Assembly (NCBI GenBank): GCA_019359395.1
Contig: JAHHHK010000007.1
Span: forward strand, 62,001 to 126,000
Reading direction: 5' to 3'
Length of the DNA stretch: 64,000 nucleotides
DNA from: Komarekiella atlantica HA4396-MV6
GTDB lineage: Bacteria > Cyanobacteriota > Cyanobacteriia > Cyanobacteriales > Nostocaceae
Shown piece after piece: positions 14,010 to 43,846 of the stretch. The position numbers and the translations under genes are program-made. A model generated the notes under the pieces. The model worked only from the letters and a program-made list of their open reading frames with translations, had not been told where the DNA came from and did not search any database. How positions within the stretch are numbered: the stretch's first letter is position 1; every line of letters begins with the position of its first letter.

Positions 14010-14415
14010 GGAGTAGGCGCAGGCAGTTGCAGATCAGTCATAGTTACTGATTTGAGGAAAGTCCGGGCTTCCGAAAGACCAAACTTGCTGGATAACGTCC
14101 AGTGCGAGCGATCGTGAGGATAGTGCCACAGAAAGATACCGCCTTTTCAGTGAACAGTTATCAGTAAACAGTAAACAGTTAATACTTGATAACTGATAAC
14201 TGAATAGGGTAAGGGTGCAAAGGTGCGGTAAGAGCGCACCAGCAGCGTCGAGAGGCGCTGGCTCGGTAAACCCCGGTTGGAAGCAAGGCGAAAGGAACTA
14301 CGGTTGGTCTTTTACCAGTTCCGCTAAAAAAGAGCCGCTTGAGGCGTCTGGTAACAGATGTCCCAGATAGATAACTGCCCTCGAAAGAGAACAGAACCCG
14401 GCTTATGTCCTGCTC
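14010..14415 (+). ncRNA. rnpB: RNase P RNA (type A, cyanobacterial) with an STRR insertion
   Basis: GAGTAGGCGCAGGCAGTTGCAG 5' end, GAGGAAAGTCCGGGCT, CACAGAAAGATACCGCC, GGTAAACCCCGGTTGGAAGCAAGGCGAAAGG, 3' ACAGAACCCGGCTTATGTCCTGCTCTTTCC. Confidence 0.94.
14152..14204 (+). repeat. STRR (CAGTAAA/CAGTTAT heptamers) inside rnpB, with self-complementary halves
   Basis: cagttatcagtaaacagtaaacagttaatacttgataactgataactg. Confidence 0.85.
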
Positions 14416-14530
14416 TTTCCTTTAATGGATTATGGAGGCTTTTGCTTTTGTAATCCATTATTTATTTGTATGAATTTTGTGAGATGGGAATTTACCCTGC
14501 TTATCTACTGCTCAAATCAACAGCAGGCGC

Positions 14531-24278: not shown

Positions 24279-24629
24279 TTGTACTAGCTTAGACGTTAAT
24301 CATACCCTGAGCATCATTCTGCCGATAAATTTTATTGAAAGCAGCAGCAAAACCTTCCTTGTGGCGTTGTCGGAAAGCCGCCCCATCCCCAAAAGCTTAA
24401 TGCTCCAATACTTTTCGGTTAAGCCTAAAAATCTCCCTTCTGGTCTGGCAAAAGGTTAAGGGGTAAATTCAAACCTTTTCCCTTTAACCGAGAAGTCTTG
24501 ACTTAATGCCTCATGCCCAAAAACCACATGTGCCAGTTTAAAGAGCGGAATGTGAGGTAATAAATTGACCAAAAGTGTATGGGATATTTACTGTGTATTT
24601 TGTTATCTGGTGCTTCTTCGGTAGAAATT

Positions 24630-25505
24630 ATGAGATTCCAACTTAAATCTTTTATTGCTTTTACATTGTTTGCTATTAGCGCAAATTTATCTATTTCTCC
24701 ATTTGCTCAAGCCGCAAACTTCAAGACTAATTTGACTCCAGAGAAATATAATTCTCAAGAGGATATTTGGTTAAATTCTATTACTCAAAATCAAAAAACA
24801 TTTGATGATTTCTCATTAGTTAAATCAGCCGAAATCCTATATAATACACCAATCACAGGTGTTCGACCTGGAGCTAGCAGCATACCTGGGCCAGGCAACA
24901 ACAATACTGGAGCTGCCAGTACAGAAAAAGGAGATTCTGCCAATTCTCCTGTGCCTATTTCTGGGTTAAATAATCCAACTAATAGCGAAATTGCCGCTAT
25001 ATTAGGTAATCGCAATTTAAATAATATTATTGATACAGAGGATAATGGTGCTTCTAAAATAAACTTATTCTTCGACAGTTCTATCGAACAAGATAATACT
25101 GGGTTAGATAACTTGTTCTTTTGGGAACGAGGCATGAACAGTGACTTAGGTGTGCAAGCGATTGATAGCAGTGGAAAATTACTTGGTAATTTCTTAAAAC
25201 TCTCTAGAACTGAGCAAAAAAGCGCTGGCTATTCAATTGACACTACAGAAATTTCTGCTTCTCAACAAGTTGGCTATTGGGGAGTTAACCTTAGTCAATT
25301 GGGTGTCGATTCTCTGAGTGGGATTCAAGTTATAGCCAAGAGTCAAGCTAATAATGATTCCGAATATTACAATGGCCCTGATTACAAGGTATTAGCTAGA
25401 AAAACAACTAGAAGAGTGCCTGAGCCAGGTGCTATGTTGGGTTTAGGAATGATTGCTGGGACTATCGGCTTACTACGCCGTGGTCATTCTACTCGTGTTC
25501 AATAA
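24630..25505 (+). CDS. PEP-CTERM sorting-domain secreted protein
   Basis: Signal peptide; C-terminal RRVPEPGAMLGLGMIAGTIGLLRRGHS. Confidence 0.85.
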   Translation: MRFQLKSFIAFTLFAISANLSISPFAQAANFKTNLTPEKYNSQEDIWLNSITQNQKTFDDFSLVKSAEILYNTPITGVRPGASSIPGPGNNNTGAASTEKGDSANSPVPISGLNNPTNSEIAAILGNRNLNNIIDTEDNGASKINLFFDSSIEQDNTGLDNLFFWERGMNSDLGVQAIDSSGKLLGNFLKLSRTEQKSAGYSIDTTEISASQQVGYWGVNLSQLGVDSLSGIQVIAKSQANNDSEYYNGPDYKVLARKTTRRVPEPGAMLGLGMIAGTIGLLRRGHSTRVQ

Positions 25506-26198: not shown

Positions 26199-26509
26199 CA
26201 TACTCTGAATCTCCATTTGGAATGTGGGATTTAAATTGTATGATACTAGCGATCGCTCTGTTAACTGTTGATGATTCCACTTTGCTCACAGATACTACTT
26301 TTTTGTGTAAAAATTACACATTAAAATGCATATTTTACAGCATAAATAAAGGTGTTAGCTGTAAAATATGCATTGGCACAGTAGTTAAAACTATTTGCGT
26401 TTAAAGCAAGAGGATAAGCAGAAAACTAAGAACTGTACTAGCAGTTTTCTCCTCCCTCAGCTTGCCAAGTTTAAACTACAAGACTATCTACTCTACGGGC
26501 TTTGCCAAG

Positions 26510-26725
26510 TTAGTATTTTTTGCAAGGATACCAAGAGTAGTAGCAGCAGCGGTAACGTCGTCTTTTACCGTACCTATCTCCTTTGTAGTCATCTTGTTTG
26601 TCGTAATCTTCTTTGTAGTCGTCTTTATCTTTGCCGTAATAAGAATCTTGTCCTCCAGATAGAAGCTGTTGTTCTGCTAAGGACAGTTCTCTCAAAAAGT
26701 CAGATTTGATGATTTGAATTGACAT
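26510..26725 (-). CDS. Double-glycine leader peptide 1, Tyr/Asp/Lys-rich core with CC...C
   Basis: MSIQIIKSDFLRELSLAEQQLLSGG | QDSYYGKDKDDYKEDYDKQDDYKGDRYGKRRRYRCCYYSWYPCKKY; start set by the shared upstream element. Confidence 0.8.
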   Translation of the reverse strand: MSIQIIKSDFLRELSLAEQQLLSGGQDSYYGKDKDDYKEDYDKQDDYKGDRYGKRRRYRCCYYSWYPCKKY

Positions 26726-26732
26726 AACTTTT

Positions 26733-26768
26733 AGCCCCACTTTACGTACATAGGTGCATAACACCTAT
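26733..26768 (-). promoter_or_regulatory. Shared palindrome + RBS element, copy 1 (ATAGGTGTTATGCACCTATGTACGTAAAGTGGGG)
   Basis: Near-identical to elements upstream of three other peptide genes. Confidence 0.85.
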
Positions 26769-27054
26769 GGTTCTACTTATAAGCATGTTTTTTATAAATT
26801 AAATTATCCTAAAGCTATAAATAAAAAGGTTTTATTTATAGCTTTTGGTTAACGCAAACTATATCTAATTGCTGATTAACAGTTTGTGTAATTATAGTAA
26901 GTAATAATCTAAGTTACTTAGCTTTATTTAGACGTATTTCTAGTATTAACTACCAGGTTATTTATTAGTTAACTATATTATGTTTAGTCTGTAAGTGTTA
27001 CTTTTAATTTATATACTCAGAATGTGGTATTTTTTCATAGTTTATTAAGATATT

Positions 27055-27086
27055 AAAAACCCAGTTTTTTAAGAAACTGGGTTTTT
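27055..27086. terminator. Intrinsic hairpin terminator AAAAACCCAGTTTTTTAAGAAACTGGGTTTTT
   Basis: GC stem flanked by A/T tracts, downstream of peptide gene 2. Confidence 0.85.
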
Positions 27087-27449
27087 GAGGCCTAGGTATT
27101 TTCACAACTCGAACAGAGTTGCTATAGATAGCATCTCTATTCTAGAAAATACCTTTGTAGGCACAAAATTAAACCTACGACCTTGAGTTTTTCCGTAAAA
27201 ATCTGTTTGTCAAGTAGTCAAAGCTATTTACATCAAAAATAAAGGGAGAGCAGAAAAGTAAACACTTTACTTAGCAGTCTACTTTCCTGTTCTCTAAGGT
27301 ATTAATTTAATACCTTATAAGAATAGAGAAGACTTACTAGAAACTCTCAAAATCTGATTTATTTTAAGTAAATTATAGAAGTCTTCTTTTCTCCCCATTA
27401 ATAGCAAATTTTCAACTACAAGACTACCCAGTTTTTAGGTTATACTAAC

Positions 27450-27695
27450 TTAGCTGCAACAAGATTTCGGCTTACAACATGAGGGCTTGTGTACTCTACA
27501 AACTGTGACTTTAAAAGTTTTACATTTCTTCTTAGAGCCACAGCCATTTTTACCATTATCGTCGCCGTTATCGCCGTTATCTTTACCGTTATCGTCGCCG
27601 TTATCGCCGCCTTTGTAGAAACCTCCAGATAGAAGTTGCTGCTCGTTTGTAGATAAATCTACAAGTAAATCAGACGTGATGATTTGAGATGACAT
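27450..27695 (-). CDS. Double-glycine leader peptide 2, Asn/Asp/Gly repeat region plus Cys-rich tail (7 Cys)
   Basis: MSSQIITSDLLVDLSTNEQQLLSGG | FYKGGDNGDDNGKDNGDNGDDNGKNGCGSKKKCKTFKVTVCRVHKPSCCKPKSCCS. Confidence 0.88.
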   Translation of the reverse strand: MSSQIITSDLLVDLSTNEQQLLSGGFYKGGDNGDDNGKDNGDNGDDNGKNGCGSKKKCKTFKVTVCRVHKPSCCKPKSCCS

Positions 27696-27702
27696 AATTA
27701 AT

Positions 27703-27736
27703 TCCCTCACTTACGTACATAGGTATGTTTTACCTA
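27703..27736 (-). promoter_or_regulatory. Shared palindrome + RBS element, copy 2 (TAGGTAAAACATACCTATGTACGTAAGTGAGGG)
   Basis: See copy 1. Confidence 0.87.
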
Positions 27737-28043
27737 CACTTTTCTTTATAAAGATTTTTTTTAATAATTAAACTCTCCTAAAGTGAGAGATTACAAAGCT
27801 AAAATTATAACTTTTGGATAATGTCAGATACTATCTGAAGTTACATGAGTTTTTTATAAAAGTTCTAAAGAATGAATGAATATTTTTGTTTAAGAAAGTT
27901 AACAAAACCTAACTTTTTATTGTTGGCGATCGCTTTCTCAAGTATTTATTAACCAACGGTATTAAGTTAGATGATAAAATTTGACATAAGGCATTTTTTG
28001 ATAGTTATATCCACATAACAACACTTAAAAGTTTATAAACACT

Positions 28044-28074
28044 AAAAAACCCGTTTTCCTTAAGGAAAACGGGT
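28044..28074. terminator. Intrinsic hairpin terminator AAAAAACCCGTTTTCCTTAAGGAAAACGGGTCT
   Basis: Perfect stem downstream of peptide gene 3. Confidence 0.85.
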
Positions 28075-28264
28075 CTAGGAAGCTGGCAATTTCTACAAAT
28101 ATAGTAGATTGCTGTAGATAGCATTTTATCTGGGAAAAACCTTGACAAATGCTATATTTTAGCTACCATTTTGACCAAAACCTGATTGCTTGCGAGGAAG
28201 TTATATAAGTCTTTTCCTTCACTCACGAATTACAAAGTTTAAATTTTGGAGCTACTACATCAAC

Positions 28265-28495
28265 TTAATGAGAGCAGCGAGGTTTGGGTTTGCAACATGA
28301 AGGTTTTTTGTAGACTTTGACAATGAAGATTTTGGAAGGACTCTTGTGTTTCTTACCTTTATCGTCATCGTCATCGTCATCGTCATCGTCCTCGCCGTTG
28401 TCGCCTTTGTAGAATCCACCAGATAGAAACTGCTGTTCTTCTGTGGATAAATCCATGAGTAAATCAGAAGTGATAATTTGAGATGACATAGACAT
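28265..28495 (-). CDS. Double-glycine leader peptide 3, poly-Asp core plus Cys-containing tail
   Basis: MSMSSQIITSDLLMDLSTEEQQFLSGG | FYKGDNGEDDDDDDDDDDKGKKHKSPSKIFIVKVYKKPSCCKPKPRCSH. Confidence 0.87.
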   Translation of the reverse strand: MSMSSQIITSDLLMDLSTEEQQFLSGGFYKGDNGEDDDDDDDDDDKGKKHKSPSKIFIVKVYKKPSCCKPKPRCSH

Positions 28496-28502
28496 AATTA
28501 AT

Positions 28503-28538
28503 GACCTCACTTACGTACATAGGTATGTAATACCTATA
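28503..28538 (-). promoter_or_regulatory. Shared palindrome + RBS element, copy 3 (ATAGGTATTACATACCTATGTACGTAAGTGAGGTC)
   Basis: See copy 1. Confidence 0.88.
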
Positions 28539-28829
28539 CTTTTAGTTATATAAATAATTTCTAATGATTAAATTATCCCAAAGTTATAAATTACTCAGAT
28601 CAAGCTCTAGCTTTAGACTCATGCTAAATATCTTTATTATTAATAATAAAAGATGTTTTTAAGTTCTAATAAAAAGCTTACCATTTCTATTGAAATAACT
28701 TTATTCGCTGCTTTTTGTGCTAGCGATCGCTTCCTATAATGTTTGTCTATTAAGACTATTACAAACATCATTATTTCTTATATAAATTATTGCTTATTAG
28801 TTACAAAAATAGCAATACTAATAATTATT

Positions 28830-28859
28830 AAAAAACCCGCTTTTTTTTAAAGCGAGTTT
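28830..28859. terminator. Intrinsic hairpin terminator downstream of peptide gene 4 (AAAAACCCGCTTTTTTTTAAAGCGAGTTTA)
   Basis: Imperfect stem-loop with A/T tracts. Confidence 0.65.
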
Positions 28860-28895
28860 ATAAAGTATTGCAATTTCTACAAGTCTGCCAATTAA

Positions 28896-29087
28896 CTATG
28901 AATCACGCCTAAAGCCGACAATATCGACAGGAAAACTTACGCCTTCTTTAGTGGTGAGATTACCACGAACGATAATGTCGGGACTTGACACTGTTGCAAA
29001 ATATGATCCTCGTCCTCCTGACATAAGCTGTTGTTGCTCTTTAGATAACTCTACAATTAGCTCAGATTGAATGAATTTAATAGACAT
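28896..29087 (-). CDS. Double-glycine leader peptide 4, Cys-free core
   Basis: MSIKFIQSELIVELSKEQQQLMSGG | RGSYFATVSSPDIIVRGNLTTKEGVSFPVDIVGFRRDS. Confidence 0.82.
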   Translation of the reverse strand: MSIKFIQSELIVELSKEQQQLMSGGRGSYFATVSSPDIIVRGNLTTKEGVSFPVDIVGFRRDS

Positions 29088-29094
29088 AATCGAT

Positions 29095-29130
29095 GACCTC
29101 ACTTACGTAAATAGGTGTTAAATACCTATA
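29095..29130 (-). promoter_or_regulatory. Shared palindrome + RBS element, copy 4 (ATAGGTATTTAACACCTATTTACGTAAGTGAGGTC)
   Basis: See copy 1. Confidence 0.85.
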
Positions 29131-29319
29131 TGTTTATTATTAACTATTCCTATATATTTTAAATTATTCTTTGGATAGAATTTAATGTTAAAAAAGTCAT
29201 TTATTATAGATTGTGATAGCTTTAAAAAATAATTTTTGAGTTTATATTTTGAATAAAAACAAGCATATTTTAAAGCTAATTTACTATTGGCTATTAGCTA
29301 ATCCAAATAATTATTTAGA

Positions 29320-29870
29320 ACTAGCCCTTTCAAGGTAAGTAAAAAATCCTCAAAAATTTACCAAATTTTGGGCTTTTCATCTTTGTGTTTTAGTACGGGC
29401 AGTCCGTTCAAGTCAAGCCACTGTCTTGCCCAGAGTTGTCTGTAGCTTGCTTTCCTACGGAACGCTACGCGAACCCGCAGGGTGCGGAGGTTTCTGACGC
29501 TCGTTCCTCTCTACGTGACGCTGCGCTATCCGTTGGCGCAGCCCAACCTAGGAACGCCACTTGCTACAAGCCGGGAAACCCGTCCAATGCAGTGGCTCAA
29601 CTTTTCAAGACAGGCATCAGAACTTCACCTAGCAAAGACGCTGCGCGAACGGAGGGTTCCCACGGCAGTCCGTTCAAGTCGGGAAACCCGCCCACACGGC
29701 TGCCTCCCCGTTGTAGCCAGTGGCGCGGGAAACCCGCCCACACGGCTGCACTCGCCTTATTGGTTCAAAAGTCAATTTTTTCACCACTAAGATACAGCGA
29801 AAAGTCTGAGCGGAGGCTTCCTCCGAGCAGAACTTTTCAAGAGAAAGACACCAAGAAAAATATATTACAC
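29320..29870. repeat. Dispersed repeat related to 20240-20440, interrupted by ~370 bp of nested short repeats
   Basis: AGCCCTTTCAAgg..GTAAAAA...TTGGGCTTTTCA..TTTGTGT and CGAAAAGTcTGAGCG...ACTTTTCAAGA.AAAGACAC.AAGAAAAATA shared; internal gggaaacccgcccacacggctgc twice (29681, 29727). Confidence 0.75.
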
Positions 29871-29978
29871 GTTGAAAGGGATAGTCCTATTATTATTTTT
29901 AATTCAGGGTCACGACTTGTTAATAGTTGCAGATTTTATAACTGTCTCTGCAACTTATTTTTATTCAGTTTCACAGTT

Positions 29979-32141
29979 TTATAAGAACTTTAGATGCTCT
30001 CCTTGTTGAGAGAGAAAAGTTTCTAACGTACCTTGGATTTTCACCTGACCTTTATCTAGTAGTACAATCCAATCAGCGCGATTAATGACACTGGGGCGAT
30101 GGGTGATCAAAATCGTGGTTCTGCCTTTTCGGTATTCCAAGAGCCGATCTAGTACTTGAGATTCACTCACTGGGTCTAATCCCGCAGTTGCTTCATCTAA
30201 AATTAGTACAGGTGGATCAGTGAGAATTCCTCTAGCGATCGCTAATCTTTGTCTTTGTCCACCAGAGAGATTTGCGCCAAATTCTCCTAAAACAGTTTGA
30301 TAGTTGTTGGGAAGTTGACTAATAAAGCCGTCTGCATCGGCAACATGGCAAGCTGTGACAATTTCTTCAAAGGATATATAAGGTGTTCCTAAGCGGAAGT
30401 TCTCTAAAATTGAGCGACTCCAGAAATGGGGTTCTTGGGGTACATAAACTACTTGTTGTCGTAAGCAATCCAGAGAAATATCTTGTGTGTTAAAAAAACC
30501 AATGCGGATATTACCAGAATTCGGCTGATATAAACCTGCTATCAATTTAGCTAAGGTACTTTTACCACAGCCAGATTTTCCAATCAAAGCAACAACTTTT
30601 CCGCCAGGAAGCTTGACAGAAAAATCCTCTAGTAAGTCAATTCTACCAGCATGATGAAACGTAACTTGAGAGCAACGAATATCTGCATCACCAGAGATTT
30701 GAGCGATTGGCTTTTGACTACCGCCTACCACTTCTGGCGTAGCATCAATAACTTCCAAAAGGCGAGAGACTGCTGTTTGGGAACGAAAATATTCATCCGT
30801 TAAGTTAACTAACGAGTCAATTAAATTTAGAACATTGATCTGTAGAGCGTTAAAAGCAAGCATTTGACCGATGCTTAATTCCCCCCGAATGACCAACATG
30901 CTCCCTAGTCCGAGTATTATGACACCGCCGATTGTAGAAAGGAGATCAGCAAGGGTATTATTGATAATTCCGATTTGAGTTGTGCTGAAAGAAAGATTAG
31001 CAAGGCGACCAAAACGACTCTGAAATTCATCCCAGAATTGCGGTGCAGCATTTGTAGTTTTGAGAACTTGTGCCCCTTTAAAAGTTTCCACTAAAACACC
31101 TTGATTTTCTGCACCCAAAACCAAAAGATTGCGAGTTTTTTGTTGAAGAATAGGTAAAAAAGGTAAGGTGGATAAAGTCATTAAAGCGCCAACAAGAACA
31201 ACTGCAAGTGTTAGCTGCCAGCTATAAAGCAACATGAAGCAGAAAGAAACCACTGCAACGAAAAACTGGCTGGGTAAAAGAACCACAACTTGTGATACTA
31301 ACTGGTTGACGTCACTTATATCTCGTAGTCGGCTGCTGATTTCGCCACTACGACGAGCTTCGTAGTAATTCAAGGGCAATTGCAGAATTTTGCGCCCAAA
31401 CTCTAAAACCAGCCCTAATTGCAGCCTTTGACCAAAATGAGCAATCATGATACCTTGTAATACTTGCAGACCGCTGCTAAACAAAGTCATGACTACAACA
31501 GCTGACACCACAACAGTAAGTAACTGGGTATCTCCACGCACTAAAACATCATCTGTGAGCAGTTGGATCAAGATGGGAGTACCCAGAGCAAGCAGTCCCA
31601 ACACAACATTGATCATCAAAACATGAGTTAACAGCCCACGGAAAGGCAAGATGCGCTTAAAAAAGCGTCCTATGCCACCTTTGGCTTCTTCTTTAGGCTG
31701 CTCATTAAAATGTTCTGGATCTGGCTCCAGTAGGAGCATCACCCCATTCCACGCTTCGGTCAATTCTTCTCGGCTGACATAACGGATACCTACAGAAGGA
31801 TCGGCGATCGCATACTTACTACCCAGTTTGTCGTATAAAACAACCCAGTGATAGCCTTGCCAATGTATGATAGCTGGCAAATGAACTTCTTTAATTCTGT
31901 CTATAATCGCTGGCGAAGCTTTAACTGCCCTAGCATTAAAACCCAGATTTTCAGAGCCACGTTTTAGACCCAACATGGTTGTTCCTAACTGTCCAGTCCC
32001 TACTGCTTCACGGCTGCGATTAATGCTTAGGAACCGTCCATAATGTTTGGAAATTGAAGCCAGACAAGCTGCTCCACAGTCTTCTTCACTCAACTGTAAA
32101 ACACACTGGTAATTTTTATGAGGTTGAAATAGATTAAACAT
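29979..32141 (-). CDS. Peptidase-containing ABC transporter (C39 double-glycine peptidase + TM + ATPase)
   Basis: C39 Cys (SEEDCGAACLASISKHYG), His/Asp (HWVVLYDKLGSKYAIADPSVG); Walker A GKSGCGKSTL, LSGGQRQRLAIARG, VLILDEATAGLD. Confidence 0.94.
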   Translation of the reverse strand: MFNLFQPHKNYQCVLQLSEEDCGAACLASISKHYGRFLSINRSREAVGTGQLGTTMLGLKRGSENLGFNARAVKASPAIIDRIKEVHLPAIIHWQGYHWVVLYDKLGSKYAIADPSVGIRYVSREELTEAWNGVMLLLEPDPEHFNEQPKEEAKGGIGRFFKRILPFRGLLTHVLMINVVLGLLALGTPILIQLLTDDVLVRGDTQLLTVVVSAVVVMTLFSSGLQVLQGIMIAHFGQRLQLGLVLEFGRKILQLPLNYYEARRSGEISSRLRDISDVNQLVSQVVVLLPSQFFVAVVSFCFMLLYSWQLTLAVVLVGALMTLSTLPFLPILQQKTRNLLVLGAENQGVLVETFKGAQVLKTTNAAPQFWDEFQSRFGRLANLSFSTTQIGIINNTLADLLSTIGGVIILGLGSMLVIRGELSIGQMLAFNALQINVLNLIDSLVNLTDEYFRSQTAVSRLLEVIDATPEVVGGSQKPIAQISGDADIRCSQVTFHHAGRIDLLEDFSVKLPGGKVVALIGKSGCGKSTLAKLIAGLYQPNSGNIRIGFFNTQDISLDCLRQQVVYVPQEPHFWSRSILENFRLGTPYISFEEIVTACHVADADGFISQLPNNYQTVLGEFGANLSGGQRQRLAIARGILTDPPVLILDEATAGLDPVSESQVLDRLLEYRKGRTTILITHRPSVINRADWIVLLDKGQVKIQGTLETFLSQQGEHLKFL

Positions 32142-32300
32142 TGATCACCAAACCTATCAAATTGCTTGCTATACACAAGGATTGGGTATTAAATATTGGT
32201 CATTAGTCACTAGTCATTAGTCATTGAGCATTAGTTACTCTTTCTTCACCCTGCTCCCCCTGCTTCCTAGTCCCCAGCCCCCAGTCCCCAATCAAGGGGA

Positions 32301-33977
32301 TTAAAAATCTGTAATTAATCTTGCTTTTCTGAGAATGAAGTGAAGTACTGTTTCCCGCCGGGAAATAATATCTGCTCTACCTTCCATCCCAGACTTGAGA
32401 TAGCAATGGCGATCGCTTCTACCCACATGTAGGGTTTGTGGTTCAATAGTTACCTCGTAGGTAGCAGCCTGCGGTATAGCTTGCTGCGTGCCTGGGGATG
32501 CACTATTTTTTGCACTTGAGAGGGCATCTGGTGCAATTGTTGTGACAGTTCCTTTAAGAGTGCCGTAGTCTGGATAAGGGCAAGCAGAAACCTGCATCTG
32601 GACTTTTTGACCTGCTTTTACTTTGTCAATATCTTGAGCCGGCACTTGAGCCTTGATCAGCACTGGAGCATTGAGAGGAGCAATCTGGGCAATAGCTTCA
32701 CTTGGTTGTACTACCTGTCCAGGGTTACGAAGATTTAGTTGCAACACAGTACCTTCAATTGGCGATCGAATCACACTCTGTTTTAGGTCAGTTTCTACCT
32801 GTTGCAGTTCTTTGCGATTAGTAACAAGTTGCTTTTGAAATTCTAGATTTTGCTGGAGTAGAGTCTCTCTTTCTTTTTTCAAAGCAGCTAAGGTAGCCTC
32901 ACCTTGTGCTTTTTCTTGCTTAATTTTTTCAGATGCTACGGTTACAGTAGCGTTACTAGGATTAATCGCAGTTTTAGCCTTTTCTAAATTTGTTTGCGCG
33001 ACTTGAACAGCTTGGTCTTTCTCTTCTAAAAGATTTTTAGCGTTTTCTTTAGCTTGTTCTAGCTTCGCCTCAGCAGATTTCACCGCTTGGGCTTTTTCTT
33101 CCAAAAGATTTTTAGCATTTGCTTTAGCTTGTTCTAACTTTGCCTCAGCAGATTTCACCTCTTGTTCTTTTTCCTCAAACAAAGTTCGAGAAATTGCTCC
33201 CGATGCTACTATTGGCTGCAATCGCTCTCGTTGCACCCTCGCTAACTTCAAGGCTGCTTCTGCTTCTTGCACAGTTGCCGTTAAGACTTTTTCCCGCTGC
33301 AATCTGTCTAGTTGCACCCTCGCTAACATCAAGGCTGTTTCTGCTTCTTGTATATTTGCTGTTAAGAGTTTTTCCCGCTGTAATCTGTCTCGTTGCACTC
33401 TCGCTAACGTCAAGGCTGCTTCTACTTGCGCCATATCAGCTGTAGCTTTAATTTGCTGATCTTCATAGTTGCGTTGAGTACCACCTAGCTCAGCTTGTGC
33501 AGCTATAATTGTGCGGTTAATTAAGTTTGTCTGCGCTGCAATCTGAGTATTAATTTCACCAAGCTGAGCATAAATTTGACTTAATTGTAATTGACTCTGC
33601 TGAATCGTGTTTTCTAATTGGCTCTTTTGATTTTGCAGCCGAGAATCATCAATGTAAGCAATAGCTTCCCCTTTAGTTACTACCTGATTGTCTTTAGCCT
33701 CAATCTTTTGAATGGTTCCAGTAATAGCAGACTGAACAACTCGCAGTTCTCCTACAGGTCGAATAGTTGCAGGAACTTTAACTGTAACGTTGTAATTTAG
33801 AACAGATGTAAGAGTAACTCCTGCTACAAAGATAGACAGCAGAACTCCCCCTCCGATGTTTGTCCACTTACTGATACGAGGGAGAAACTCGTTAGCTTCA
33901 ACTAAATGGAGTTGCTCTGGATTAGGTTCATCTAACCTATGCCAAACATCATTTCTTTCTTGGCGTAAGAAGCTCAC
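32301..33977 (-). CDS. HlyD-family periplasmic adaptor with duplicated coiled-coil blocks
   Basis: Single N-terminal TM, VKVPATIRPVGELRVVQSAITGTIQKIEAKDNQVVTKGEAIAYID lipoyl-like half, long coiled coil, IRSPIEGTVLQLNLRNPGQVVQPSEAIAQIAP. Confidence 0.92.
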   Translation of the reverse strand: MSFLRQERNDVWHRLDEPNPEQLHLVEANEFLPRISKWTNIGGGVLLSIFVAGVTLTSVLNYNVTVKVPATIRPVGELRVVQSAITGTIQKIEAKDNQVVTKGEAIAYIDDSRLQNQKSQLENTIQQSQLQLSQIYAQLGEINTQIAAQTNLINRTIIAAQAELGGTQRNYEDQQIKATADMAQVEAALTLARVQRDRLQREKLLTANIQEAETALMLARVQLDRLQREKVLTATVQEAEAALKLARVQRERLQPIVASGAISRTLFEEKEQEVKSAEAKLEQAKANAKNLLEEKAQAVKSAEAKLEQAKENAKNLLEEKDQAVQVAQTNLEKAKTAINPSNATVTVASEKIKQEKAQGEATLAALKKERETLLQQNLEFQKQLVTNRKELQQVETDLKQSVIRSPIEGTVLQLNLRNPGQVVQPSEAIAQIAPLNAPVLIKAQVPAQDIDKVKAGQKVQMQVSACPYPDYGTLKGTVTTIAPDALSSAKNSASPGTQQAIPQAATYEVTIEPQTLHVGRSDRHCYLKSGMEGRADIISRRETVLHFILRKARLITDF

Positions 33978-35782
33978 GGCATTGCACCTTTGTTTAGAGT
34001 GGATAAGTACGGTTATCTGATGTCATACCTGTTAATTTCCGAAGAACACTGCAATGCAGATTCTCAAAACAGGTAGATATATATAACTTGATTGCAAATC
34101 GTGCAAGGCGGAAAAATAACTATCTTTGGTAATAAGTCAGAGGGAATAGTCAAGTGAAGCATTAAACATTACAAAATATCCTGTAGATATAAGTCTTGAG
34201 TGTGTTAAATGGTGAAACGTTAACATCTGCTGCTAACAGTAGCAACAATCAAACTTTGCAATGTTATATAATTAGTAAAGGGGGCGAGAAGGGTATACGC
34301 AACATGCGAAAATTATCTTTCTCAAATCTCAAACGTGGGCAACGCGTTGAGTAAAGAAAACGGAGGAGAAAGCTCAAACTCCCTCAAAGTCCTCACTTAC
34401 GTTGAGCGAGTCATAAAAACCTCCTCCAACCCCCTTTTTTGTATACAACAAAAAAACTTCAGCAATTTATTGGCAGATTTAGTTTTGTCCGAAACATTTA
34501 GCTAGAGCGTTAGGTATACATAGAGGAAAATGGCACGAAACCTCAGAATTGCTCAGCGTCACAACCATTAAATTGTATATTTACAGTTGGGAAAGAAATC
34601 ATCAGCTTGATGTTCATGCAAAACCATATTTACTGTTGAATGATTGGCGACTCCTATTAAACTAATTTCTGCTTAAATGTGCAAAGTTTTATACTGTGAC
34701 AGAGAATTTTCTAGATTAGGTATGATGTCCAGTCAGGCTAAATAGTTTTAATTCAGAGTAAGAAGCAAGCCACGCGTAGTGTCTCCGAAAAGAGATTGAT
34801 CTACGAGATACTACCCTTTAGCAAGCAGTGTAGAGCGTGTCTATACTCCTATGCTCCACTAAGTTACGCTCAGCACGAAAGATATTTTTTGATAAGTGAT
34901 TAAACGAACTTGATACGACAATCGTTAAACAATAAGTGCAGAACCCAAGAAGCCCATAATATCTGTAGGAATGGTTGCAACCAAGCCTAATTAGTCTTGT
35001 GCTGCCATATTTATGGCTTTATTCTCAGCCAAGGAATTTACTAGTGCTGTCTTAGAACTTAGAAGTGGTTGTTCCCTGTAAAGCCGCTAGTTCTTAGAGT
35101 AATATTGCTGTTAATCCGATTAAAATCGGTACAGCCAGTCAGAATCTCCTATTGCTGATTCAGATAACGCGACAAACAACTCGATATGCAGTTATTTGAT
35201 GTAACATGATTATTAACCTCACATATGCCATTCGGTGGTTTCCCCACTTAAGTAACCAACTATAAGGACTGTTTGTCAGGAATTCATAAATCTAGAGGTA
35301 GAAATCAGACTTAAATAATTATTCCCCAAAGTAGATATACAATCTTTCATTTTTTTGAGATAAACTAATACCCTTAGAGTGGGAATGGTCGATATTCAAT
35401 GTTTTTGAAGCGATCTAATGTATTTGAAGAGATATTAACAAATTTTGGATAGTTAAAACTATAACTTTTACGTATAGTTAGTAAACACGTAGTTTCTACC
35501 TACCAAATCCAGATTCAAGATTTATCAATGATAAACTAAATCGATACTTTATACTTCGATTTTCAGATTTTTAGGCGATTTCACTGGAATTTAGCTAACA
35601 GTAATAAGCAGAAAACCATCCAAAAGTTTGCGGTGATAAACTGCTAAGCGCTGATATCAGGTAATACCGATTCAATTAATGATTGCAACAAATCCTTTGG
35701 TAGAAACGTTACATTGCAACATCTCTACATGGTCTATCTGTCACATTTTTTTAAATTGGTATAAGTTTGAAATGCAGTATCC

Positions 35783-38919: not shown

Positions 38920-39393
38920 CTACGCATCTTGAGGATTTAACTCTTTCAATTCGTCGGTGGTATAAGTTCCAATTGGACTCCAAATTAGATAAGGAGCGAG
39001 TAACAGCGCCGCTAGTCCAGAAATCGGCAGAACGCAGATTGCTAGGACAACGCCTAAAATTAAACCGGTGAACCCAATAATTTCCCCAGCTTTTAGACTG
39101 CGAAATCTCAGCATTAGAGGTATATAGGCGACGGTGATAATTTCCAGTAGGAGGTAGAAACCCATTAGCAGCCAGGTGATGAGGCTTCCGGGATTTTTTT
39201 GCCAGACGATATTAGCTGAAATTGCACCGCAAATAAAAATTACAGTCCAAATAATCGGGATAAGCGGCTCAAAAACTAGCCATTTAGGGCGTCTCAACTG
39301 TGCAAACCATTTGACATCGCGCGGCGTAATCAAGAAACTACCAAATTCGATTAATAAAGTTATAGCCGCAATCACCATCCAAGATTTAATCAT
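38920..39393 (-). CDS. tspO: TspO/MBR-family protein, copy 1
   Basis: 157 aa, 5 TM; FAQLRRPKW...PIIWTVIFICGA. Confidence 0.82.
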   Translation of the reverse strand: MIKSWMVIAAITLLIEFGSFLITPRDVKWFAQLRRPKWLVFEPLIPIIWTVIFICGAISANIVWQKNPGSLITWLLMGFYLLLEIITVAYIPLMLRFRSLKAGEIIGFTGLILGVVLAICVLPISGLAALLLAPYLIWSPIGTYTTDELKELNPQDA

Positions 39394-39482: not shown

Positions 39483-39956
39483 TCAGGTATCTTGAGGATT
39501 GAGACTAGCCATCTGCCAAGTGGTATAAGTGCCAATAGGACTCCACAGCAAATAAGGAACTAGTAATAATGCCGCCCAACCAGAAATAGTTAATACTGCA
39601 AGTATCAACAAAATACTGATAATAAAACCTGTACCACCGAGAATTGTTCCTACTTTAAGACTGCGAAGCCTGAACATTACAGGCGTATAGGCAATGGTAA
39701 CAATTTCTAGAAGCAGGTATAAACCCATCATTAACCAAGTTGTGGTGCTTCCTGGGTCATTTTCCCAGACAATATAAGCTGACCAAGCACCACAAATAAA
39801 GATTACAGTCCAAATAATTGGAATTGCTGCCTCAAAAGTTAGCCATCTAGGTCGTTGTAGGCGCTTGAACCATTGGCGATCGCTTGGTGTAATCAAGTTA
39901 GCCGCTAGAGCAACTAAGAAAGCCACACCCCCAATCACCATCCAAGATTTAATCAT
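39483..39956 (-). CDS. tspO: TspO/MBR-family protein, copy 2
   Basis: 157 aa, same length and clearly homologous to the 38920-39393 protein. Confidence 0.82.
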   Translation of the reverse strand: MIKSWMVIGGVAFLVALAANLITPSDRQWFKRLQRPRWLTFEAAIPIIWTVIFICGAWSAYIVWENDPGSTTTWLMMGLYLLLEIVTIAYTPVMFRLRSLKVGTILGGTGFIISILLILAVLTISGWAALLLVPYLLWSPIGTYTTWQMASLNPQDT

Positions 39957-42952: not shown

Positions 42953-43846
42953 TTAACTTTTACATTTTGCACCCTGCGGAGTAGCATCGGGGTAGAAGGT
43001 AATAATCGCCTTCTCTTTCCTCACAAAAACTGTGGGAAAAGATTTACCTGATTCGCGATCGCTTCCAGCGGAGCGTAGCTCATCGCGCACATTATAAATA
43101 CACGCTCCCTCAGTATTTCCTTGTAGTTTAAATATTCGGGTTGCATCTATAAGCATTTCTTCGGCGTTGCTAAGGTAGCCATAGCCTTTAATTACATCTG
43201 TTACCGTTCGGTTTTCCTGTTTAAGCACTACACCCATTGTATAAATTACACCAGGAACAACTTCCTCTCGCCCTTGATTATTTGGTAGGCGTCCGCCAAT
43301 TCCTTCATTTTGTAGCTGTAAATATCTGCCATGAAAATGCAAGCCGCCAATATCTTTAGCGTTATATATTTCACCACAAAAAATGTGTTCAAATCCCCGA
43401 CGTTTGAACCAGATATTAGTTAAATCTTCGACAAATTGCGCTTTTTTCCGACGCCCCGGACGCAATTCGCCACCGCTAACTTGCTGAAGTTTCTGTAATA
43501 CATCCGGGTAAAAGGATAACAATTGTTTAAATTTATTGCTAGTAACTCTTGTCCCAATAGGGCCACAGATTTGTAGTACAGCTTGGTCAAAAGAATTTAG
43601 CAGCGGTGGGGATGGTGTAATGTCTAATTTCTGTCCTGCGGGGAAGCCCACAGGAACAGGGTTATCTACATTATCAAAAAATGGCAGAAGTTGTGTATTG
43701 GGCTGAGACTGCGCGTCTACTGGATTTTGCCAGTTGAGTATGGATAGCAGTAGAATCACAAACACTCTTACAAACTTATGGTTTGCAGAATTGAGATGCA
43801 TAAATTCTAGATTAATTACTGAAATAATAGTCTCACAATAATACAC
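42953..43846 (-). CDS. Secreted hypothetical protein, EndoU-like candidate
   Basis: Signal peptide; IFCGEIYNAKDIGGLHFHGRYLQLQNEGIGGR is reminiscent of bacterial EndoU domains. Confidence 0.5.
   Translation of the reverse strand: MYYCETIISVINLEFMHLNSANHKFVRVFVILLLSILNWQNPVDAQSQPNTQLLPFFDNVDNPVPVGFPAGQKLDITPSPPLLNSFDQAVLQICGPIGTRVTSNKFKQLLSFYPDVLQKLQQVSGGELRPGRRKKAQFVEDLTNIWFKRRGFEHIFCGEIYNAKDIGGLHFHGRYLQLQNEGIGGRLPNNQGREEVVPGVIYTMGVVLKQENRTVTDVIKGYGYLSNAEEMLIDATRIFKLQGNTEGACIYNVRDELRSAGSDRESGKSFPTVFVRKEKAIITFYPDATPQGAKCKS

What the first reader, a model, noticed from the sequence alone, without database searches (positions are those of the whole stretch)
26405..33977. Four-peptide double-glycine export locus with hypervariable cores and its own C39 ABC/HlyD exporter
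Four small minus-strand genes share a leader of the form MS.Q.I.SDLL.(D/E)LS..EQQLLSGG, followed by unrelated mature regions: Tyr/Asp/Lys-rich with CC, Asn/Asp/Gly-repetitive with 7 Cys, poly-Asp with CC, and Cys-free. They lie next to a transporter with an intact-looking C39 Cys/His/Asp set and an HlyD adaptor, all on the same strand. No LanM, YcaO, radical-SAM or other RiPP-modifying enzyme is recognisable nearby. The cargo may therefore be unmodified or disulfide/metal-binding secreted peptides. Double-glycine leaders with C39 exporters are established bacteriocin/peptide-export logic; the novelty would be in the cores and in this combination.
Basis: partly seen in the sequence, partly recalled or inferred. 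Interest (0 to 1): 0.85.

Follow-up and report, generated by a model that had tools for sequence, protein, structure and literature searches.

The report
Secreted-peptide locus with new RNA elements
This is a cyanobacterial cluster of four small secreted-peptide genes with their exporter, a kind already known from genome surveys, but its peptide genes carry two undescribed conserved RNA structures, a hairpin before the gene and a large four-way-junction fold after it, that occur almost only with such genes.

Summary
Four minus-strand precursors share a leader ending in GG; beside them lie an HlyD adaptor and a C39-ABC exporter with intact Cys22/His98/Asp113. No RiPP-modifying enzyme was found within 10-49 kb. 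The reading "novel cores, novel combination" holds only in part. The layout is the published cyanobacterial "group III bacteriocin" cluster, conserved in about 80 Nostocales loci. Peptide 4's core is a family across about ten other genera. Cores 1-3 are conserved between orthologues; the variability is between paralogues.

The new part is non-coding. (1) A 5' hairpin between a -10-like box and the ribosome site precedes all four genes. A model of it hits only GG-precursor starts: 9/9 in this genome, 57/57 in 60 relatives' genomes, 93/94 in the transporter loci. (2) An RNA of at least 161 nt (about 230 nt with its basal stem), a covarying four-way junction absent from Rfam, follows precursor stop codons (gene 2 here) and lies upstream of hlyD (34274-34437). 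This genome has five copies, all at this system.

Most likely: a dedicated exporter of unmodified GG peptides, with each precursor gene an independent unit whose mRNA is bracketed by stabilising or insulating RNA structures. The RNA function is inferred, not shown.

The parts
26510..26725 (-). precursor g1, GG leader + Tyr/Asp/Lys-rich core ending RYRCCYYSWYPCKKY
   Evidence: ORF, leader HMM E 2.6e-32, orthologues with dN/dS about 0.15-0.28
27450..27695 (-). precursor g2, GG leader + Asn/Asp/Gly repeats + 7-Cys tail
28265..28495 (-). precursor g3, GG leader + poly-Asp + SKIFIVKVYKKPSCCKPKPRCSH
28896..29087 (-). precursor g4, GG leader + Cys-free beta-hairpin core PDIIVRGNLTTKEGVSFPVDIVGF
   Evidence: AlphaFold2 strands 38-45 and 51-58, pLDDT about 88-94 there
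29979..32141 (-). C39 peptidase-ABC exporter (C22/H98/D113)
   Evidence: Pfam, full-length match to PCAT1-type transporter 4ry2 residues 9-717
32301..33977 (-). HlyD membrane-fusion adaptor
   Evidence: HlyD_3 3.3e-21 and TIGR01843 9.6e-41
26723..26781 (-). 5' hairpin element of g1 (-10-like box to ATG)
   Evidence: RNA model R1, E 6.2e-6
27693..27750 (-). 5' hairpin element of g2
   Evidence: R1 E 2.6e-7
28493..28550 (-). 5' hairpin element of g3
   Evidence: R1 E 1.9e-8
29085..29142 (-). 5' hairpin element of g4
   Evidence: R1 E 3.1e-8
27161..27451 (-). complete 3' structured RNA of g2 (four-way junction core 27238-27399, on a long basal stem)
   Evidence: fold z -7.0 for 27200-27440; covariation; R2 E 3.1e-25
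26328..26472 (-). truncated relic of the 3' RNA after g1 (3' half only)
   Evidence: nhmmer model positions 142-287, E 1.5e-23
34274..34437 (-). copy of the four-way-junction RNA upstream of hlyD
   Evidence: R2 E 2.5e-6; same place in about 45 related loci
34925..35207 (-). pseudogene of a CTB-family precursor with decayed 5' element (the gene intact at this place in relatives)
   Evidence: read by eye; intact CTB precursors at this place in relatives

Best explanation
A group III-type cyanobacterial peptide-secretion locus. Each of the four small genes is its own transcription unit: promoter, 5'-terminal hairpin, strong ribosome site, ORF, 3' structure. Shown by sequence: the leaders, the intact C39 site, HlyD, the conserved RNA structures, and the restriction of those structures to GG precursors. 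Inferred: the C39 domain cuts after GG, the ABC/HlyD pair (with a TolC-type outer-membrane protein encoded elsewhere) exports the unmodified cores, and the cores act outside the cell, more likely as matrix, surface or competition peptides than as modified antibiotics. Also inferred: the 5' hairpin, placed where transcription should start, and the 3' four-way-junction RNA bracket the precursor mRNA so that it is stable and separated from its neighbours. That would give far more precursor than exporter mRNA and would explain a copy between the ancestral CTB precursors and hlyD.
For: Locus conserved in 80 Nostocales contigs and matching the published group III layout. Purifying selection on orthologues. 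5' hairpin: stems start mostly 4-7 nt after a -10-like hexamer and end 8-12 nt before the GAGG; 38 of 144 regions beat all 40 shuffles, 3.5 expected; 6 of 8 pairs have two-sided changes, 0/500 shuffles reach this. R1 hits: 9/9 in this genome, 57/57 in 18 of 60 genomes, 93/94 in the transporter loci, all on the gene strand. 3' RNA: z -7.0; 77 cells with two-sided change against 42 shuffled, 82% paired against at most 49% when slid. R2 hits: five real copies in this genome; 33/33 inspected loci lie after a GG ORF or upstream of hlyD.
Against: No expression, peptidomic or TSS data for this strain. The promoter and transcript ends are inferred from consensus. g4 lacks the 3' RNA, g3 has only an eroded piece and g1 a truncated one, so the RNA is not needed for every gene. 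A conserved four-way junction is more elaborate than a plain stability element needs. The genome has at least six full-length C39 transporters, so pairing of these peptides with this exporter rests on proximity. R1 was trained on GG-precursor upstream regions, so its recall is partly built in; only its lack of hits elsewhere is independent.
Confidence: 0.6

Rival explanations
1. The 3' four-way-junction RNA is a regulatory RNA in its own right (ligand- or protein-sensing, or released as a trans-acting small RNA) that controls expression of the secretion system, including read-through into hlyD.
For: Elaborate covarying four-way junction with a conserved P2 arm and loop; copies upstream of hlyD as well as after precursors; five copies in one genome, all at this system.
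Against: Lies 3' of ORFs, unusual for a riboswitch. A pairing of the P2 arm with the precursor ribosome site was tested and is no better for cognate than for non-cognate pairs (-7.4 against -7.9 kcal/mol).
Confidence: 0.3
2. The conserved 5' and 3' sequences are the ends of a mobile or recombining cassette that spreads and reshuffles GG-peptide genes.
For: Orphan units with the same flanks at other genome places (C56, C62 tandem pair); cores differ greatly between paralogues.
Against: No recombinase linked to the units; the flanks keep compensatory base changes as RNA structure; no copies without a precursor or hlyD in the genomes searched; 5' hairpin stems change sequence while keeping pairing. 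Ordinary duplication explains the dispersal.
Confidence: 0.07
3. The peptides are true bacteriocins (antagonism), as the family label says.
For: Group III clusters are called bacteriocin clusters (PMC3140520); weak leader matches to the NCBIfam CTB family; CTB precursor mRNAs rise under phosphate limitation in Nodularia (PMC9846622).
Against: No immunity gene recognised; no activity shown for group III products in the papers read; the only tested analogues, EbfG1-4, act in biofilm and EbfG1-3 form amyloid (PMC4997328, PMC9981879).
Confidence: 0.3
4. The 5' palindrome is a DNA operator for a dimeric regulator rather than an RNA hairpin.
For: In the short-loop class the sequence ATAGGT-N5-9-ACCTAT is strongly conserved and overlaps the expected start of transcription.
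Against: Other precursors have a stem at the same place with quite different sequence and loops of 11-32 nt, pairing kept including G-U pairs; two-sided changes at 6 of 8 pairs.
Confidence: 0.2

Closest known systems
Group III cyanobacterial bacteriocin gene clusters (Wang, Fewer and Sivonen 2011, PMC3140520)
   Same: short C39-TM-ABC transporter, HlyD, several double-glycine precursors with divergent cores, no modifying enzyme
   Different: that survey as read here does not report shared non-coding elements; the phylogenetic clade of this transporter was not tested here
CTB family bacteriocin, NCBIfam NF038167 (cyan_ocin_like)
   Same: leader region; true CTB precursors lie upstream of hlyD in relatives (91.9 bits, cut-off 32) and share the 5' element
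   Different: the four window peptides score 14-21 bits, below the cut-off of 32, and match only in the leader
EbfG1-4 / PteB of Synechococcus elongatus (PMC4997328, PMC9981879)
   Same: four small GG-motif proteins exported through a C39 peptidase-transporter; mature parts without known domains
   Different: ebfG is described as a four-gene operon; here each gene has its own 5' element. No sequence comparison with EbfG was made
Intergenic inverted repeats after the structural gene in lantibiotic operons (from general knowledge, not looked up)
   Same: structured RNA between an abundant precursor message and the export genes
   Different: a covarying four-way junction in place of a simple hairpin; found after single genes and orphans too

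Membership tests
Group III cyanobacterial bacteriocin cluster | short-type C39-ABC transporter without N-terminal CAP_ED extension | tested here: met
   720 aa; Pfam finds only C39, ABC_membrane and ABC_tran as above-cut-off domains
Group III cyanobacterial bacteriocin cluster | HlyD next to the transporter | tested here: met
   32301-33977
Group III cyanobacterial bacteriocin cluster | several GG precursors nearby; no LanM, no second ABC without C39 | tested here: met
   (ORFs from 10 to 49 kb)
Group III cyanobacterial bacteriocin cluster | transporter falls in clade III of the published tree | not tested
CTB family (NF038167) | score above the curated cut-off of 32 bits | tested here: not met
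   14.0, 18.8, 21.0 and 20.5 bits
NHLP bacteriocin system | NHLM_micro_ABC1 cut-off (853) and NHLM_micro_HlyD cut-off (156) | tested here: not met
   450 and 44 bits
C39 processing exporter | catalytic Cys, His and Asp | tested here: met
   C22, H98, D113 in the expected motifs
C39 processing exporter | cleavage after GG and export of the core | not testable with these tools
   needs peptidomics
Class II lanthipeptide or other RiPP | modifying enzyme in the neighbourhood | tested here: not met
   none in Pfam scans of 10-49 kb
Known Rfam RNA family | match to any Rfam 15 model | tested here: not met
   no match up to E 1 in 24-36 kb; only RNase P in the whole window; only sub-threshold chance hits in the paralogue loci

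The most novel reading that the evidence does not exclude
Nostocaceae use a previously undescribed structured RNA class (at least 161 nt, four-way junction, about 230 nt with its basal stem) as a dedicated regulator of a double-glycine peptide secretion system: it follows precursor ORFs, sits upstream of the exporter operon, and works together with a 5'-terminal mRNA hairpin, so that a whole genome's scattered secreted-peptide genes form one RNA-marked regulon.
Probability: 0.35. Interest if true: 0.78.

Novelty: new variant of a known kind. Interest (0 to 1): 0.6.

Why it matters
Cyanobacterial GG-peptide clusters have been catalogued since 2011 with almost no known function. The two RNA elements give a sequence handle that finds precursors, including orphans and unannotated genes, without knowing the core, and tie scattered genes into one system. 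The 3' RNA is a covarying structured RNA with no Rfam family, so its role (stability, insulation, sensing, small RNA) is directly testable in genetically tractable Nostocales. The shared g4 core (a predicted beta-hairpin across about ten other genera) is a good first peptide to make and test.

Tried and rejected
1) First pattern ACCTATNTACGTAANGTGNGG was mis-spaced for g2-g4; corrected. 2) A palindrome further upstream (CAAAAGCTA..TAGCTTTAGG), perfect in g1, looked like an activator site; across 283 genes it barely exceeds shuffles (39 against 26 expected), so dropped. 3) Pairing between the 3' RNA's P2 arm and the precursor ribosome site: cognate no better than non-cognate. 4) RNAalifold with default settings gave no structure on A5 because of gaps and divergence; a structure from averaged pair probabilities was counted instead, so the structure was derived from these sequences, and the P1 and P4 covariation is the safer part. 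5) Mobile-cassette idea: no recombinase, no empty copies. 6) Nodularia operon numbers (PMC9846622) come from software prediction, so were not used as evidence for separate transcripts. 7) g4 homologues on public plasmids: none. 8) Two exoproteome papers (PMC4390845, PMC11890772) hold no mention of these peptides. 9) Literature searches for a described RNA at such loci found none, but the library holds open papers only.

Full report
WHAT IS THERE. The window holds, on the minus strand, hlyD (32301-33977), a C39-ABC exporter (29979-32141) and four small precursors g4, g3, g2, g1 (28896-29087, 28265-28495, 27450-27695, 26510-26725) with a common GG leader. The C39 site is intact: C22 in EEDCGAAC, H98 in QGYHW, D113 in IADPS; the transporter aligns over residues 9-717 with the bacteriocin transporter PCAT1 (4ry2). 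Pfam scans of ORFs between 10 and 49 kb show a photolyase, a trypsin-like protease, TspO, an MscS-type channel, an EndoU nuclease and metabolic enzymes, but no RiPP-modifying enzyme.

THE LOCUS IS WIDESPREAD. Transporter orthologues were fetched from 80 Nostocales contigs. The usual order is: CTB-family precursors (NF038167, 91.9 bits against a cut-off of 32), hlyD, C39-ABC, a protein of about 100 aa with a weak GG leader, then one to four small GG peptides. The window has lost the first part: at about 34925-35207 a CTB precursor pseudogene remains. This layout (short C39-ABC, HlyD, several precursors, no modification enzyme) is group III of Wang et al. 2011 (PMC3140520). The window peptides themselves fail the CTB cut-off (14-21 bits).

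THE CORES. Between close relatives cores are 78-93% identical, with whole-gene dN/dS mostly about 0.1-0.4, so they are real genes under constraint. g4's core is a family: PDI-x-V-x-G-x-L..G..(F/I)PV-x-I-x-GF in about ten loci outside the genus (best 3.4e-9); AlphaFold2 gives a confident beta-hairpin there (pLDDT about 88-94). g1-g3 have only weak matches outside the genus, and low-complexity composition explains part of these.

ELEMENT 1: 5' HAIRPIN. Each precursor is preceded by TATAAN or TAATAAT, 4-7 nt, a hairpin (ATAGGT..ACCTAT in the window), 8-12 nt, GAGG, ATG. Among 144 such regions 38 beat all 40 of their shuffles (3.5 expected); stems of other sequence and with loops of 11-32 nt occur at the same place. 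On 54 aligned sequences, six of eight pairs show two-sided changes (0/500 shuffles) and 82% of cells pair against at most 47% when slid. The covariance model R1 finds nine places in this genome up to E 1, all nine directly before GG-leader ORFs found independently by the leader HMM. In 60 relatives' genomes it finds 57 places in 18 genomes; 55 lie before leader-HMM hits and the other two are GG precursors by reading. In the 80 transporter loci, 94 hits, all on the gene strand, 93 at GG-precursor starts. Because the model was trained on such genes, recall is partly built in; the absence of hits elsewhere is the informative part. Since the hairpin begins where transcription from the -10-like box should start, I infer a 5'-terminal mRNA stem-loop, a known way to slow mRNA decay (general knowledge, e.g. 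ompA).

ELEMENT 2: 3' FOUR-WAY-JUNCTION RNA. A stretch of about 290 nt following the stop codon of g2 recurs after precursors in other genera (nhmmer to 1e-34). The window copy folds with z -7.0 (0/200 shuffles); one orphan copy has z -3.2. On 22 sequences an 81-pair structure (basal stem, P1, and three hairpins P2-P4) shows 77 cells with two-sided changes against 42 in shuffles (0/500), 33 pairs with such changes (1/500), and 82% paired against 41-49% when slid; in P1, seven of eight pairs covary. The structure was derived from these sequences, which inflates the percentage paired but not the two-sided changes against shuffles. Model R2 (161 positions), built only from copies after precursors, finds an additional copy just upstream of hlyD in about 45 loci and at 34274-34437 here. 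In this genome it has five real hits, all at this system. In 60 genomes it hits 16, and all 33 loci inspected lie after a GG ORF or upstream of hlyD. Neither element matches Rfam 15. g1 keeps a truncated copy, g3 an eroded piece, g4 none.

HOW IT PROBABLY WORKS. Cleavage after GG by the C39 domain and export through ABC/HlyD follow from the family (inferred). The two RNA structures most plausibly bracket each precursor message, keeping it stable and separate from its neighbours. That fits their placement around precursors and between the ancestral CTB genes and hlyD, where much more precursor than exporter is needed. A regulatory RNA is the main rival. Whether the peptides kill competitors, build matrix or bind metal is open; the only tested analogues, EbfG1-4, act in biofilm and EbfG1-3 form amyloid (PMC4997328, PMC9981879), and CTB precursor mRNAs respond to phosphate limitation in Nodularia (PMC9846622). 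The genome has at least six full-length C39 transporters, so orphan peptides need not use this one.

VERDICT. The locus is a member of a known kind; its paired RNA elements make it a new variant and are the reason for the score.

Noticed in passing
G000 contigs C56, C62 (two), C21, C72, C75 (loci L020, L017, L018, L019, L016, L025): Orphan GG-peptide units away from this locus; five of the six give 5'-element model hits (C72 only by eye) and three carry the complete 3' RNA. Cores range from Arg/Asp repeats to Gly/Trp/Arg repeats and a poly-His run.
   Followed up: partly
L021, L022, L023, L024 (G000 contigs C47, C47, C9, C24): Further GG-leader peptides in this genome without either RNA element, apparently a separate set (several share an upstream TTTTGGAATATTTGCG..TTCGTT stretch).
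   Followed up: no
window 42953-43846 (-): EndoU-family nuclease domain (Pfam 3.2e-30), often a toxin domain in bacterial conflict systems.
   Followed up: no
window 38920-39393 and 39483-39956 (-): Two tandem TspO/MBR genes.
   Followed up: no
window 24579-25505 (+): Exosortase-dependent surface protein XDP2 with PEP-CTERM tail (NF041929, 220 bits).
   Followed up: no
window 29400-29830: Repeat-rich non-coding stretch (GGGTTTCCCG, GCGTAGCG-type repeats) between g4 and the exporter gene, where relatives have a gene of about 100 aa with a weak GG leader.
   Followed up: no
window 14010-14420 (+): RNase P RNA, class A (Rfam 257 bits).
   Followed up: no
L067 14609-14665: Single R1 model hit (1 of 94) not followed by a recognised GG-leader ORF.
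   Followed up: no
alignment A5 columns 285-323 (downstream end of the 3' RNA): A further conserved hairpin UUUACGGC..GCCGUAAA with loop motif AUAACUCAA, resembling the P2 arm; possibly the terminator of the unit.
   Followed up: no
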